A stretch of 32,039 bases of DNA, taken from Tissierellia bacterium. GTDB taxonomy: Bacteria; Bacillota; Clostridia; Tissierellales; Tissierellaceae. Positions within the stretch are counted from its first letter, which is position 1. Each line of letters begins with the position of its first letter. The translations under genes and the position numbers were made by a program. The DNA is taken from positions 1 to 32,039 of the forward strand of contig JAAYLY010000058.1 in NCBI GenBank assembly GCA_012521625.1. Reading direction: 5' to 3'. Positions 11,075 through 32,039 of this stretch are shown here, piece by piece. The notes below the pieces were generated by a model. It had not been told where the DNA came from and searched no databases. It saw only the letters and a list, made by a program, of their open reading frames with translations.

Positions 11075-11596
11075 TTGAGTAAATTGATACAACTATTTAT
11101 TTCCTTTTTCAAGATTGGAGCCTTTAGCTTTGGCGGAGGCTATGCCATGTTACCCTTACTTGAAAAGGAGTTAATTGAAAAACATCAGTGGATAAGTTCT
11201 ACAGACTTTATAGATATAGCAGCTATTTCTGAAATGACTCCTGGACCTATAGCTGTAAATTCAGCCACCTTTTTAGGTTACAAGATTGCAGGAGTTTTAG
11301 GTTCTATAGTAGCCACTATTGCAGTTATTTTACCCTCCTTTATCATTATCTCTTTAATATTTAAGTTTATAAGTAAGTTTAAAAGCTCCCCCTACATAGA
11401 ATGGATTTTTAGGGGAATAAGGCCTGTTGTTTTAGGCCTTATTGGGGCTGCAGCCGTAACAGTGGGTAAGACCAGCTTTGTAGATATAAAGGCTGTAATA
11501 ATAAGCATACTATTGTTTTATTTAGTAAGTATTAGGAAGTTAAACGCTATATTGGGTATAATATTAGCAGGTGTAATGGGGATTTTTTTATATTAG
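11075..11596 (+). CDS. chrA: Short (single-domain) chromate transporter family protein, subunit 1
   Basis: 173 aa; FFKIGAFSFGGGYAMLPLLEKE, EMTPGPIAVNSATFLGYK; TTG start. Confidence 0.88.
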   Translation: MSKLIQLFISFFKIGAFSFGGGYAMLPLLEKELIEKHQWISSTDFIDIAAISEMTPGPIAVNSATFLGYKIAGVLGSIVATIAVILPSFIIISLIFKFISKFKSSPYIEWIFRGIRPVVLGLIGAAAVTVGKTSFVDIKAVIISILLFYLVSIRKLNAILGIILAGVMGIFLY

Positions 11597-11607
11597 GAGA
11601 TGGGAAT

Positions 11608-12171
11608 ATGTTATTAAAATTATTTATCACCTTTTTTAAGATTGGTGCTTTCACCTTTGGTGGAGGCTTTGCTATGATTCCCATTATTCAGCAGGAGATG
11701 GTTGAGAAAAATAACTGGATTAAAGATGAGGATTTTCTAGATATCATATCCGTAGCCCAATCAGCTCCAGGGCCTATAGCTGTAAATGCTAGTGTCTATG
11801 TAGGTTATAAGATTAAAGGTTTGCCAGGAGCCCTTGTGGCGGCAGGGGGTACAGTCTTACCATCATTTTTGACTATCTTGTTAATAGCCATTTTCTTTTC
11901 TAGATTTAGTGAAAATATAATCATTCAAAAGATATTTCTGGGTATCAGGCCAGCTGTTGTAGCATTGATTCTATCAGCCATATATGGCTTGCTTAAGAGT
12001 TCCCGTTTAAATAGGGGACAACTTTTACTAGCTTTAACTTCATTTTTTATAATAGTTTTTCTTGATTTAAATCCCATATATATGATAATTTTAGGAATAG
12101 CCATATCCATATTTTATAATAAGTCAAAGAACAGCAGTAATTACAAGAGTACAAGAACACTGGATGATTAA
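11608..12171 (+). CDS. chrA: Short (single-domain) chromate transporter family protein, subunit 2
   Basis: 187 aa; FFKIGAFTFGGGFAMIPIIQQEMV, QSAPGPIAVNASVYVGYK; paralogous to the preceding gene. Confidence 0.88.
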   Translation: MLLKLFITFFKIGAFTFGGGFAMIPIIQQEMVEKNNWIKDEDFLDIISVAQSAPGPIAVNASVYVGYKIKGLPGALVAAGGTVLPSFLTILLIAIFFSRFSENIIIQKIFLGIRPAVVALILSAIYGLLKSSRLNRGQLLLALTSFFIIVFLDLNPIYMIILGIAISIFYNKSKNSSNYKSTRTLDD

Positions 12172-27974: not shown

Positions 27975-27990
27975 GCTAATAATTATTAGC
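27975..27990. repeat. Perfect 16-bp palindrome downstream of murA
   Basis: GCTAATAATTATTAGC. Confidence 0.9.
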
Positions 27991-28020
27991 GATAAGGTTG
28001 TCACCTTATCGCTTTAATAT
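27988..28020 (+). terminator. Terminator-like hairpin after murA
   Basis: AGCGATAAGGT (27988-27998) tgtc ACCTTATCGCT (28003-28013), perfect 11-bp stem, then TTAATATTT. Confidence 0.75.
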
Positions 28021-28033
28021 TTAAAATTTTCGT

Positions 28034-28054
28034 TGAGAATGACTATCATTTTCA
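28034..28054. promoter_or_regulatory. Fur box upstream of feoA
   Basis: TGAGAATGACTATCATTTTCA; the inner 19 nt match 15/19 of GATAATGATAATCATTATC. Confidence 0.8.
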
Positions 28055-28083
28055 TTGACAAGGTAAATCTAAAGTGTTAAAAT
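28055..28083 (+). promoter_or_regulatory. Promoter of the feo unit
   Basis: Consensus -35 TTGACA (28055-28060), 17-bp spacer, extended -10 TGT-TAAAAT (hexamer 28078-28083). Confidence 0.82.
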
Positions 28084-28141
28084 TTTATTAAACAAATGAT
28101 ATTATATATTAATGAAAAAGATGTTTGCAGGAGGGGATCTC

Positions 28142-28354
28142 ATGCCTATATATAGCTTAAATAAAGACACTAGCTGCAGGATAGTATCTATCCCTAATGT
28201 AAGCCTATTAGAATCTCTAGGCATTAGGAAGGGTATAAAGGTTAAGTTGAAAAATAAACAGCCACTAGGCGGGCCTGTAGTAGTACAAATGGGTACTAGG
28301 AATATTGCCATTGGGCGTGATATAGCAAATCAAATAATGGTGGAGGTAATCTAG
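28142..28354 (+). CDS. feoA: FeoA-domain protein
   Basis: MPIYSLNKDTSCRIVSIPNVSLLESLGIRKGIKVKLKNKQPLGGPVVVQMGTRNIAIGRDIANQIMVEVI; SD AGGAGGGG before ATG 28142 rather than 28112. Confidence 0.88.
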   Translation: MPIYSLNKDTSCRIVSIPNVSLLESLGIRKGIKVKLKNKQPLGGPVVVQMGTRNIAIGRDIANQIMVEVI

Positions 28355-30115
28355 ATGAGCAAGAGTAGTACTGACATTGAAACTGCTACTGCTAGTAAGA
28401 GGATCTTACTTATGGGTAACCCCAATGTGGGTAAGAGCGTCTTGTTTTTTAAAATGACTGGTGTTCAGGTTGAAATTTCAAACTACACTGGAACGACAGT
28501 TGGATTTACTAAGTCTAGGATACAGCTTGGGGATGAAGAAGTTGATTTTATAGACGTTCCAGGTACATATTCCCTAGAGTCCACATCTGAAGCAGAAGAT
28601 GTGGCAGTTAAGTTTTTGGAGTCTAAACCTACGGCTGTAGTTTGTGTTTTAGACTCAACCAACCTGGAAAGGAACTTAAGGTTGGCCCTACAGATTAAGG
28701 AATATAATATTCCCATGCTTTTTGTCTTAAATCTGATGGACGTGTCCAAAAGGCAGGGAATCAATATAGATGTTAAACAGCTGGAAAGGGAATTAGGAGC
28801 TAGGGTAATCCCTGCTGTTGCTGTTAAAGATCAGGGTGTAGACGATATTCGAAAAGAATTAACTAAATTGATAAAGGATATAGGGGATGAAGATAATAGG
28901 ATAAGGCCTAAAGGTGAAAGCCTTAGCAATGAAGAATTGTGGAATAGGGCTGCAGAAATAGCTGGTAGGGTACAAAGTTTTACCAGGGTAGAGAAGAATA
29001 TCCTTGAAAGGTTGGGAGAGCTTACCATCCAGCCATGGCCTGGTATCCCTATAGCTATCTTGGTAATGGTCTTATCATTGGCCTTAGTAGTAGGAATAGG
29101 TAAGGGGATAAGGGCTTTAATTCTACTTCCCTTTGTTAATGATGTCTATGCCCCCCTAGTTACTAAGTTGATTTCCACTTTCATTGGACCAGGTATATTA
29201 AGAAATATCCTAGTTGGTGAGTATGGAATCTTGATTAAGATGGTAGAATGGCCTCTAGCACTGATATTGCCTTATGTATTTTTATTCTATGTGGTTATAT
29301 CCTTCTTGGAGGATTCCGGCTACCTACCCAGGATAGGGGTTCTAATGGACGCCATCCTTAGTAAACTAGGAGTTCAAGGGGGAAGTATGATACCTATCCT
29401 ACTAGGTTACGGTTGTGCAGTACCTGCTGTTATAGGTACCAGGGCGGCAACAACCCTTAAGGAGAGGCTATTGGTGACCCTGATGGTTTGCTTTGCTGTA
29501 CCCTGCGTATCCCAAACAGGCGCCTTCATAAGCCTATTAGGGGATTATTCTGTTTTTATGTTAGTTACTATATACTTAATATCCCTACTTACTATGGTAG
29601 TGGTAGCTAAAATAGCCGACAGGGTCATCAAGGGACAAGCAGAACCTATGATAATCGAAATTCCAAACCTGTTGCTTCCTGATAGAAAGGCCTACTTCAG
29701 GAAGTTAAAGATGCGTATGCAGCATTTCTTTGTAGATGCAGAGCTTCCTATGTTAATAGGGGTTTTAATAGCTGCCTTAGTAATAGAAACTGGAATCTTA
29801 AACCAAGTTAGCCAATGGATTGAACCCCTTGTTGTAAATTGGTTAGGTTTACCTAAGGAAGCCAGCCTATCTCTCTTATTAGGTATAATTAGAAGGGAAT
29901 TAGCAGTCCTACCCCTGTTGGACATGAACCTAAATGGCCTACAGATGTTTGTAGGTAGTATAGTTGCCCTATATTATCTTCCATGTTTGTCCGTATTTGC
30001 AGTATTAATAGAGGAGTTTAACTTAAAGACAGCTATTAGCATATCAATAGCCACTATAGTCTCTGCCTTTTTAGTAGGGGGTATAGTCAACCAAATAGGC
30101 CTGTTGTTTATCTAG
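28355..30115 (+). CDS. feoB: FeoB-family ferrous iron transporter, divergent short form
   Basis: 586 aa; G1 GNPNVGKS, FIDVPGTYSLES, NLMD; membrane part with LLGYGCAVPAVIGTR; starts directly after the feoA stop. Confidence 0.85.
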   Translation: MSKSSTDIETATASKRILLMGNPNVGKSVLFFKMTGVQVEISNYTGTTVGFTKSRIQLGDEEVDFIDVPGTYSLESTSEAEDVAVKFLESKPTAVVCVLDSTNLERNLRLALQIKEYNIPMLFVLNLMDVSKRQGINIDVKQLERELGARVIPAVAVKDQGVDDIRKELTKLIKDIGDEDNRIRPKGESLSNEELWNRAAEIAGRVQSFTRVEKNILERLGELTIQPWPGIPIAILVMVLSLALVVGIGKGIRALILLPFVNDVYAPLVTKLISTFIGPGILRNILVGEYGILIKMVEWPLALILPYVFLFYVVISFLEDSGYLPRIGVLMDAILSKLGVQGGSMIPILLGYGCAVPAVIGTRAATTLKERLLVTLMVCFAVPCVSQTGAFISLLGDYSVFMLVTIYLISLLTMVVVAKIADRVIKGQAEPMIIEIPNLLLPDRKAYFRKLKMRMQHFFVDAELPMLIGVLIAALVIETGILNQVSQWIEPLVVNWLGLPKEASLSLLLGIIRRELAVLPLLDMNLNGLQMFVGSIVALYYLPCLSVFAVLIEEFNLKTAISISIATIVSAFLVGGIVNQIGLLFI

Positions 30116-30130
30116 TTGGGGGATGGGCAT

Positions 30131-30754
30131 ATGGCTTTAATAACGGCAATTACCCAAAGGCTGGAGTATATGGTAGAGAAACTACCCTGGACCTACTTAT
30201 TCTTTAAGAAGTACTACGATCAAATTATAGATAAGGAAATAAAATTAGCAGATATAAAAGAAACGGATAGGATCCTCTGCATAGGTGGGGGTCCTTGTCC
30301 CTGTACGGCCATTGAACTTCACAAGAGGACTGGGGCCCGTGTATGGGTTGTTGATAACGACAGGGAAGTAGTCTACAATGCCTTGAGGAACATAGAGAGG
30401 CTAAATCTTTCGGACTTTGTATCTGTAAAATATGCCGACGGGAGAGATATCTGCCCTAAGGATTTTGATATTATACATATAGCCTTGCAAGTGACCCCAA
30501 AAGGAAAAGTCTTTGAAAACTTAATAAATAAGGCTAGGCCAGGAACTAAGATATTAGTTAGGATAGCCACTGATAAATATTCTAAGCTGTATAGTTCTTT
30601 AGATATTGCTGAGGCTGAGAGGGGAATCTACAAAAAGATTAATCATAACCGAAGGAATTTAGACTATACATTCCTTTATGTAACTGCAGGAGGGCTTAAT
30701 GAAGAAGTACTTAAAGTGGATAATAATACTGCTCTTGATAGTATTGCTATTTAA
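30131..30754 (+). CDS. Small SAM-dependent enzyme resembling nicotianamine synthase family
   Basis: 207 aa; Rossmann motif ILCIGGGPCPCTAIEL then VWVVDNDREVVYNALRNIERL; ATG 30131 preferred over TTG 30116. Confidence 0.6.
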   Translation: MALITAITQRLEYMVEKLPWTYLFFKKYYDQIIDKEIKLADIKETDRILCIGGGPCPCTAIELHKRTGARVWVVDNDREVVYNALRNIERLNLSDFVSVKYADGRDICPKDFDIIHIALQVTPKGKVFENLINKARPGTKILVRIATDKYSKLYSSLDIAEAERGIYKKINHNRRNLDYTFLYVTAGGLNEEVLKVDNNTALDSIAI

Positions 30755-31700
30755 ACAATTGGATATAAATGAATACCTATTAAGCCTGAAGAAGCTTAGC
30801 CTTAATCACTGGTTAGCCTTAATTATGATGCAGCTATTAAGTTTTGCCCTCCTGCTAGTCCAGTGGAGAAGGTTGGCTACTGCTCTAGGTAAAGATATAA
30901 GAACTATGGATATGGTCTATGTAAATATGAAGGGTACCTTCTATGATACTATAACTCCTGGTTTAAAGGTGGGGGGAGAATTTGCAAGGGGTTCCAGCTT
31001 GGTAAATAAATTTGGATTTACACCAGCAGAAGCCTCGGCTTTAATAATTATACAAAAGAGTATAAGCGTATCCGCCTTAGTTTTACTCAGCATATTTTCC
31101 CTCTATCTCTTAAGTACACAATTTAAGTTGCAAGATTTGGTATTAGTTATAGCAAGTATAAGCTTTGGGGTTATACTTGCTTTACTTATTACTATTCTTT
31201 TGTTACCGGAAAAACTATATAACCATTTAGCTAGCAAAAGGCTGGAGGGAGTTTTTAAAGAAAAGAATCTTAAGTTTCTAGAAAAATATACTGAAGCCAG
31301 CAAGCTGCTTACTAAAGCTAAGAAGGAGATAGTGTTTCAATTTGTTCTATCCCTAATAGTTTGGACCCTGTTCCCCTTTAAGCTATATTTCATAATTCAA
31401 GCCTTGGGATTAGAGCTATCCTTTTTTAAAGTCTTTGCTGCAACAATCATCTCCTATATTGCTGGAATGCTTCCCCTCCTGCCAGGTGGATTAGGCAGTT
31501 TTGAAGGAACCATGGTTGCCCTCTTTCTCATCTGGGGAATTGAAAGGGAGTTAAGCTTAGTTATAGCCACCATATTTAGATTTATAACTTTTTGGTTTTT
31601 ATTCTTTATAAGCCTGGTCTATTTAGCAGGAAAAAAGGCTGGGTCAAAATTGAAAGGAGTACCTTATGAAAGTAGCCAAGAAAGCCAGTTTAAATTTTAA
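30699..31700 (+). CDS. YbhN/UPF0104 (LPG_synthase_TM) flippase-like integral membrane protein
   Basis: 333 aa polytopic; PGLKVGGEFARGSSLV and MLPLLPGGLGSFEGTMVALF motifs; SD GGAGG; 56-nt overlap with upstream gene. Confidence 0.85.
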   Translation: MKKYLKWIIILLLIVLLFKQLDINEYLLSLKKLSLNHWLALIMMQLLSFALLLVQWRRLATALGKDIRTMDMVYVNMKGTFYDTITPGLKVGGEFARGSSLVNKFGFTPAEASALIIIQKSISVSALVLLSIFSLYLLSTQFKLQDLVLVIASISFGVILALLITILLLPEKLYNHLASKRLEGVFKEKNLKFLEKYTEASKLLTKAKKEIVFQFVLSLIVWTLFPFKLYFIIQALGLELSFFKVFAATIISYIAGMLPLLPGGLGSFEGTMVALFLIWGIERELSLVIATIFRFITFWFLFFISLVYLAGKKAGSKLKGVPYESSQESQFKF

Positions 31701-32039
31701 AAGATATGCTCCCATCTTCTTTACCTCCTTAAATGCCCTTATGGGTATCCTAGTTATATATCTCATGATCCTAGATGGGGGAAATGGAAAGAAAATCTAC
31801 CTACCCCTTATGATAATATTTGCCGGAATATGCGACTGTTTAGATGGAAGGCTTGCTAGGAAGTTTAATGCGGATACCCTCTTTGGTAAGGAGTTGGACT
31901 CCTTAGCAGATGCCATCAGCTTTAGTTTAGCCCCTGTTAGCCTCTTGATAAATAATCTATTGGAATATACAGGACTTTTAGGTCTTGTGGCGGCCATAAC
32001 TTATCCCTTAGCCGGCATCTATAGACTGGCTAGGTTTAA
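31666..32039 (+). CDS. pssA: CDP-diacylglycerol-serine O-phosphatidyltransferase, N-terminal part (3' truncated by window)
   Basis: My translation from ATG 31666: MKVAKKASLNFKRYAPIFFTSLNALMG...CDCLDGRLARKFNADTLFGKELDSLAD; matches the CDP-alcohol phosphotransferase motif DxxDGxxARx8GxxxDxxxD; SD AAAGGAG; not in ORF track. Confidence 0.9.
   Translation, partial: MKVAKKASLNFKRYAPIFFTSLNALMGILVIYLMILDGGNGKKIYLPLMIIFAGICDCLDGRLARKFNADTLFGKELDSLADAISFSLAPVSLLINNLLEYTGLLGLVAAITYPLAGIYRLARF

What the first reader, a model, noticed from the sequence alone, without database searches (positions are those of the whole stretch)
28034..32039. Apparent Fur-controlled unit joining FeoAB, a NAS-like enzyme, a YbhN-type membrane protein and PssA
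Seen: a Fur-box-like palindrome abuts a near-consensus promoter and five same-strand genes follow with no internal gap: feoB starts right after the feoA stop, the NAS-like ATG is 15 nt after the feoB stop, it overlaps the YbhN-like gene by 56 nt, and that overlaps pssA by 35 nt. Known: Fur boxes upstream of feo are common. Inference: an iron-responsive transcript that also encodes a metallophore-like enzyme, a flippase-like protein and phosphatidylserine synthesis would link Fe(II) uptake to membrane lipid composition or to a small iron-handling ligand. I do not know of this combination being described.
Basis: partly seen in the sequence, partly recalled or inferred. Interest (0 to 1): 0.75.

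Follow-up and report, generated by a model that had tools for sequence, protein, structure and literature searches.

The report
Iron-uptake operon with lipid-tailoring genes
An iron-controlled gene set found across many anaerobic bacteria, and even in methane-making archaea, couples a ferrous-iron pump to enzymes that appear to build, modify and flip a special membrane lipid, which may itself be the cell's iron-catching molecule.

Summary
In detail: a Fur-box promoter followed by feoA, feoB, a NAS-like gene ("NASL"), ybhN and pssA, tightly packed on one strand. It is not strain-specific. The same order recurs in about 70 genomes of Clostridia, Bacilli and Methanosarcinaceae, about half with clear upstream Fur boxes.

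NASL is a nicotianamine-synthase domain without its N-terminal helical domain; the positions of the catalytic Glu/Tyr pair and the SAM motif are kept (invariant in 65 sequences). Phosphatidylserine (PS) synthase tracks it: in the order, 16/16 NASL genomes have pssA against 14/233 others. PS decarboxylase (psd) is absent from all 49 genomes with pssA in the cassette and present in 20/22 whose cassette lacks it. ybhN and pssA are fused in three genomes. PS is thus the likely substrate.

Best model: NASL adds a SAM-derived 3-amino-3-carboxypropyl group to the PS amine, YbhN flips the lipid, and FeoB imports the Fe(II) it captures: a membrane-anchored nicotianamine-like chelator. Shown: linkage, Fur sites, catalytic positions, pssA/psd pattern. 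Inferred: reaction, flipping, chelation. I found no description in the open literature searched.

The parts
27988..28013 (+). intrinsic terminator-like hairpin between murA and the unit (outer boundary)
   Evidence: 11-pair stem, loop of 4, T-rich tail
28034..28054 (+). Fur-box-like site TGAGAATGACTATCATTTTCA
   Evidence: 12/14 to the 7-1-7 consensus, p 0.005 by shuffles; boxes conserved upstream of feoA in relatives
28055..28083 (+). sigma-70-type promoter TTGACA-17-TAAAAT
   Evidence: 11/12 consensus with TG before the second hexamer
28142..28354 (+). feoA, 70 aa
   Evidence: Pfam FeoA 58.6 bits vs cut-off 23; GGAGGGG ahead of the ATG
28355..30115 (+). feoB, short subtype, 586 aa
   Evidence: Pfam FeoB_N, Gate, FeoB_C; TIGR00437 342.9 bits vs cut-off 315.65
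30131..30754 (+). NASL, N-terminally truncated nicotianamine-synthase-family enzyme, 207 aa; catalytic positions E12 and Y29
30699..31700 (+). ybhN-type lipid flippase family protein, 333 aa
   Evidence: PF03706 158.7 bits vs cut-off 33.4; TIGR00374 115.8 vs 43.2
31666..32039 (+). pssA, phosphatidylserine synthase, 5' part only (contig end)
   Evidence: PF01066 67.3 bits; TIGR00473 71 bits on 100 of 153 positions; full-length orthologue next to the cassette in G002, 113.6 bits vs cut-off 107

Best explanation
A Fur-repressed, iron-starvation operon that makes a special phospholipid for the FeoB ferrous-iron transporter. PssA makes phosphatidylserine (PS). NASL, a stripped-down NAS-type enzyme, transfers a 3-amino-3-carboxypropyl group from SAM to the alpha-amine of the serine head group; known NAS-like enzymes use that kind of nucleophile (glutamate, histidine). 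The product is a lipid whose head group resembles the first nicotianamine/staphylopine intermediate, a multidentate metal ligand. The YbhN flippase exposes it on the outer leaflet, where it gathers Fe(II) next to FeoB, which imports the metal with FeoA. Shown: gene order, co-inheritance, Fur sites, homology and retained catalytic positions, co-occurrence with a PS synthase, and absence of PS decarboxylase when pssA is in the cassette. Inferred: the reaction, the flipping, the chelation and the hand-off.
For: Conserved feoA-feoB-NASL-ybhN(-pssA) order across Clostridia, Bacilli and archaea, correlated divergence r 0.86-0.90, Fur boxes. NASL profile hits MtNAS at 5e-21 and CntL at 1e-14, fold match first to MtNAS, E12/Y29 at the positions of Glu81/Tyr107 (roles), invariant in 65 sequences. 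pssA in 16/16 NASL genomes vs 14/233 others in the order; psd in 0/49 cassette-pssA genomes vs 20/22 whose cassette lacks pssA and in 19/22 non-cassette pssA genomes of a class sample. ybhN-pssA fusions in L069, L104, G245.
Against: No biochemistry. NASL lacks the NAS N-terminal domain that helps build the reaction chamber, and class I methyltransferase models also match it. pssA is missing from about 30% of cassettes, though a pssA then lies elsewhere. About half of the loci, including both archaea, show no clear Fur box. Only 4 independent pssA/psd switches lie on strong branches. Two exceptions have neither cassette pssA nor psd (L075, L096).
Confidence: 0.38

Rival explanations
1. Same lipid pathway, but the modified PS is a structural or regulatory lipid (annular lipid for FeoB, or envelope charge control under iron starvation), not an iron ligand.
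For: The same pssA/psd, fusion and linkage evidence; flippase domains of this family move charged lipids in MprF-type proteins (family knowledge).
Against: Uses a NAS-derived enzyme, whose characterised relatives make metal chelators, in a Fur-linked operon with a metal transporter.
Confidence: 0.22
2. NASL is a lipid N-methyltransferase (PS or PS-derived) that only looks like NAS, comparable to bacterial PmtA-type enzymes.
For: Generic class I methyltransferase models also match; SAM-binding fold; short length.
Against: NAS and CntL are clearly the best family, profile and fold matches; the NAS catalytic Glu/Tyr positions are invariant, which a methyltransferase would not need.
Confidence: 0.13
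3. NASL makes a soluble nicotianamine-like metallophore from a free amino acid; YbhN and PssA serve the membrane separately.
For: NAS/CntL homology; conserved catalytic positions.
Against: No opine dehydrogenase, exporter or receptor gene recurs in the cassette; the N-terminal substrate-chamber domain is lost; it does not explain the pssA and psd pattern or the ybhN-pssA fusions.
Confidence: 0.12
4. Ordinary neighbours: an feo operon that happens to be followed by unrelated lipid genes.
For: No expression data; pssA is optional in the cassette.
Against: Order kept across families and in archaea, correlated divergence, co-occurrence with pssA in trans and mutual exclusion with psd.
Confidence: 0.05

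Closest known systems
Feo ferrous iron transport system (feoAB, Fur-regulated)
   Same: FeoA, FeoB with GTPase and Gate domains, Fur-type box
   Different: Short FeoB subtype (about 585 aa) linked to NASL, ybhN and often pssA; no FeoC seen
Nicotianamine synthase family (MtNAS, plant NAS, CntL of staphylopine synthesis)
   Same: Rossmann SAM domain with GGGxxP motif, catalytic Glu/Tyr positions
   Different: N-terminal helical domain missing (187-220 aa instead of about 270-300); no CntK/CntM partners; sits with lipid genes
MprF / YbhN-type lipid flippases (LPG_synthase_TM)
   Same: YbhN matches PF03706 and TIGR00374 above cut-off
   Different: No aminoacyl-PG synthetase domain; linked to PS synthesis and FeoB, in three genomes fused to PssA
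BtaA, betaine-lipid synthesis
   Same: Works like the proposed step: SAM-derived 3-amino-3-carboxypropyl put onto a lipid (PMC10491745)
   Different: BtaA is not homologous to NAS-type enzymes (PMC10491745); it acts on diacylglycerol, not on an amine (own knowledge)
PssA-Psd route to phosphatidylethanolamine
   Same: PssA family enzyme
   Different: Genomes with pssA in the cassette have no psd, so PS is not turned into PE by the known enzyme

Membership tests
Feo system | FeoB with G-protein and Gate membrane domains | tested here: met
   Pfam and TIGR00437 above cut-off
Feo system | FeoA partner | tested here: met
   PF04023 58.6 bits
Feo system | Fe(II) transport | not testable with these tools
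   needs uptake assay
Nicotianamine synthase family (PF03059) | C-terminal SAM-binding domain with GGGxxP motif | tested here: met
   27.9 bits vs cut-off 27.1; 60 of 65 members match at E<=0.001
Nicotianamine synthase family (PF03059) | Catalytic Glu (MtNAS E81) and Tyr (Y107) | tested here: met
   Y29 by profile alignment; E12 by global profile-profile alignment only; both invariant
Nicotianamine synthase family (PF03059) | N-terminal helical domain | tested here: not met
   about 70 residues absent in all members
Nicotianamine synthase family (PF03059) | Aminocarboxypropyl transfer from SAM | not testable with these tools
   needs enzyme assay
Staphylopine-type opine metallophore cluster | CntK racemase, CntM dehydrogenase and dedicated transporters beside the NAS gene | tested here: not met
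   no such genes recur beside NASL in the loci read; by reading and blast of neighbours, not a profile scan
YbhN / LPG_synthase_TM flippase family | PF03706 / TIGR00374 domain | tested here: met
   158.7 and 115.8 bits
YbhN / LPG_synthase_TM flippase family | Lipid flipping | not testable with these tools
   needs leaflet assay
MprF | Aminoacyl-PG synthetase domain | tested here: not met
   only the membrane domain matches; 42.6 bits vs cut-off 600
Phosphatidylserine synthase PssA (TIGR00473) | Equivalog score over 107 bits | tested here: inconclusive
   Window gene truncated by the contig end (71 bits on 100/153 positions); full-length cassette copies of G002, G003, G004 and G020 pass, those of G230, G232 and G245 score 101-106.5 bits

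The most novel reading that the evidence does not exclude
A membrane-anchored metallophore: NAS-type aminocarboxypropylation of the PS head group makes a flippable chelator lipid that captures Fe(II) for FeoB. It would suit cells without an outer membrane, which lose diffusible chelators.
Probability: 0.38. Interest if true: 0.93.

Novelty: new variant of a known kind. Interest (0 to 1): 0.8.

Why it matters
How FeoB collects Fe(II) outside the cell, and whether it needs accessory ligands, is a long-standing question. A conserved cassette that ties one FeoB subtype to PS synthesis, a NAS-derived enzyme and a flippase gives a direct, testable answer for many anaerobes. It also predicts a new lipid class and would explain why a set of Firmicutes have a PS synthase but no PS decarboxylase.

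Tried and rejected
The single-sequence scan of genome contigs found no relatives; the alignment scan found 66 loci. Weak 'NASL' hits at 20-30 bits in the order search look like other methyltransferases and were not counted. Literature searches for NAS with FeoB or Clostridia, FeoB with phosphatidylserine and flippase, and the feoB operon with lysylphosphatidylglycerol returned nothing relevant; the mBio Feo evolution paper (PMC8749426) has none of the terms nicotianamine, methyltransferase or phosphatidyl. Considered and rejected: strain-specific arrangement (the cassette is widespread); NASL as a replacement for Psd (NASL persists in psd-bearing genomes); PE as the common substrate (psd is absent in all cassette-pssA genomes); soluble opine metallophore (no partner genes). 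An earlier count gave 16 of 17 FeoB relatives with NASL; the recount is 15 of 17.
Full report
What is there. The unit begins after a terminator that closes murA (27988-28013). A Fur-type box (28034-28054) runs straight into a strong promoter (28055-28083). Then come feoA 28142-28354, feoB 28355-30115, a 207-aa NAS-like gene (NASL) 30131-30754, ybhN 30699-31700 and pssA from 31666, cut at the contig end, which is also the window end. Internal promoter-like sites are at the chance level and no + strand terminator interrupts the unit.

It is a conserved cassette. In the order of the source genome, 16 of 249 genomes hold a real NASL (over 200 bits; the remaining hits at 20-30 bits look like other methyltransferases). 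In the seven relatives read in full, the order feoA-feoB-NASL-ybhN is the same, with pssA next in four. A scan of GTDB genomes with the NASL profile gave 66 loci, from Tissierellia, Clostridia, Heliobacteria, Tepidanaerobacter, Alkaliphilus, Natroniella, Bacillaceae and two Methanosarcinaceae archaea. Nearly all with enough flank show the same order. Exceptions: L056, whose contig starts at NASL; and the two termite-gut Defluviitaleaceae loci, L066, where FeoB lies about 4 kb upstream and ybhN is convergent, and L092, where no partner is seen in the piece held. Median gaps are 8, 15, 8 and -20 nt. Starting from FeoB instead, 15 of 17 testable relatives of this short FeoB subtype in the class have NASL and ybhN directly behind them; L125 and the paralogue L133 do not, and L131 ends at the contig edge. 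FeoB, NASL and YbhN distances correlate at 0.86-0.90 over 63 loci, against a maximum of 0.17 in 1000 permutations, so the genes travel together.

Regulation. Of 62 upstream regions, six hold a perfect TGATAATNATTATCA, 31 have at least 12 of 14 matches, and 35 are at p<=0.05 by dinucleotide shuffles where about 3 are expected. Fur control is therefore well supported in about half of the loci. The others, including both archaea, show no clear box.

What NASL is. The best matches by sequence, profile and fold are nicotianamine synthases: MtNAS by phmmer 1e-11, by family profile 5e-21, CntL 1e-14; Pfam NAS in 60 of 65 members. The AlphaFold2 model (mean pLDDT 88) matches MtNAS first (E 9e-12; TM up to 0.77 by query length). 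The protein lacks the NAS N-terminal helical domain. Yet the two residues said to deprotonate the acceptor amine in MtNAS, Glu81 and Tyr107 (PMC10491745), both essential in AtNAS1 as E77 and Y106 (PMC10248798), have counterparts. Y29 aligns with Tyr107. In a global profile alignment with full-length archaeal NAS, E12 falls on the conserved Glu and T8 on the Thr four places before it. T8, E12, Y28, Y29, G52-G54, P57, D75, H116, Q120 and R144 are invariant in 65 sequences. The E12 match rests on the global alignment only; the local one starts after it. The first helix is on average more amphipathic than its shuffles (moment 0.39 vs 0.23, sd 0.12), a weak hint of membrane contact.

What it acts on: the strongest new evidence. 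In the order, pssA (E<=1e-15) is rare: 30 of 249 genomes. All 16 NASL genomes have it, against 14 of 233 others (Fisher 2e-17, relatedness not corrected). In the 14 genomes with pssA in the cassette that were tested, that copy is the only strong pssA; in the 16 tested genomes whose cassette lacks pssA, one lies elsewhere. PS decarboxylase (psd), which normally turns PS into PE, shows the reverse: absent from all 49 genomes with cassette pssA, present in 20 of 22 whose cassette lacks pssA (Fisher 1e-15). Non-cassette genomes with pssA nearly always have psd: 14/14 in the order and 19/22 in a class sample. So a PssA housed in the cassette feeds the cassette and not PE synthesis, and PS is the metabolite shared by both genome types. 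Many of these genomes are MAGs, so single absences are unsure, but incompleteness cannot give 0/49 against 20/22. On the FeoB tree the in/out state of pssA needs about seven changes; psd goes the opposite way in essentially all independent pairs, but only four such pairs lie on strong branches, too few for significance. ybhN and pssA are fused into one frame in three genomes (L069, 527 aa; L104, 492 aa; G245, 525-aa frame), linking the flippase to the PS pathway.

Mechanism. NAS-like enzymes attach a SAM-derived 2-aminobutyrate to the alpha-amino nitrogen of an amino acid (PMC10248798). PS carries a free serine alpha-amino acid on its head group, so it is the lipid version of such a starter. 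The simplest model: PssA makes PS, NASL adds one aminocarboxypropyl group, YbhN moves the product to the outer leaflet, and the new head group (amines, carboxylates, phosphate) concentrates Fe(II) for FeoB. Chemistry, flipping, chelation and hand-off are inference. Transfer of the same SAM fragment to a lipid is precedented by BtaA, a non-homologous enzyme (PMC10491745). Rivals that keep the lipid pathway but drop chelation, or make it a methylation, cannot be excluded. A soluble metallophore and mere coincidence fit the pssA/psd pattern poorly.

Novelty. No paper in the open library joins these genes; most subscription literature was not searchable. Each protein belongs to a known family or derives from one; the assembly, the truncated NAS domain and the psd exclusion appear undescribed. 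I class it as a new variant of a known kind (a Feo system with a lipid module). If the lipid is the chelator, it would be a new kind of metallophore.

Noticed in passing
L088 and L100 (Methanosarcinaceae, incl. Methanosalsum natronophilum): The bacterial cassette sits in methanogenic archaea, whose pssA- and psd-type genes lie in tandem elsewhere in the genome; on the FeoB tree they branch inside the bacterial loci, suggesting transfer.
   Followed up: partly
L134 (genome G568): A divergent FeoB (42% identical) has a YbhN-type gene directly upstream but no NASL, in a genome that also holds the full cassette. The YbhN-FeoB link may be wider than NASL.
   Followed up: no
L138, L143, L147 (genome G770, contig C19) and G733 contig C49: Clusters of two to four full-length NAS genes side by side in archaea; function unknown to me.
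   Followed up: no
L070, L075, L076, L083, L087, L097, L100, L102, L112: Many named carriers are alkaliphiles or soda-lake organisms, where iron is poorly soluble. Not tested statistically.
   Followed up: no
L066 1888-5901: Between FeoB and NASL lie four genes for secreted proteins, three of them similar to each other at the start (MKK...AHGVF), instead of direct adjacency.
   Followed up: no
window 11075-12171: Two adjacent small genes, the second (11608-12171) with the chromate transporter domain PF02417; looks like a split two-gene chromate transporter.
   Followed up: no
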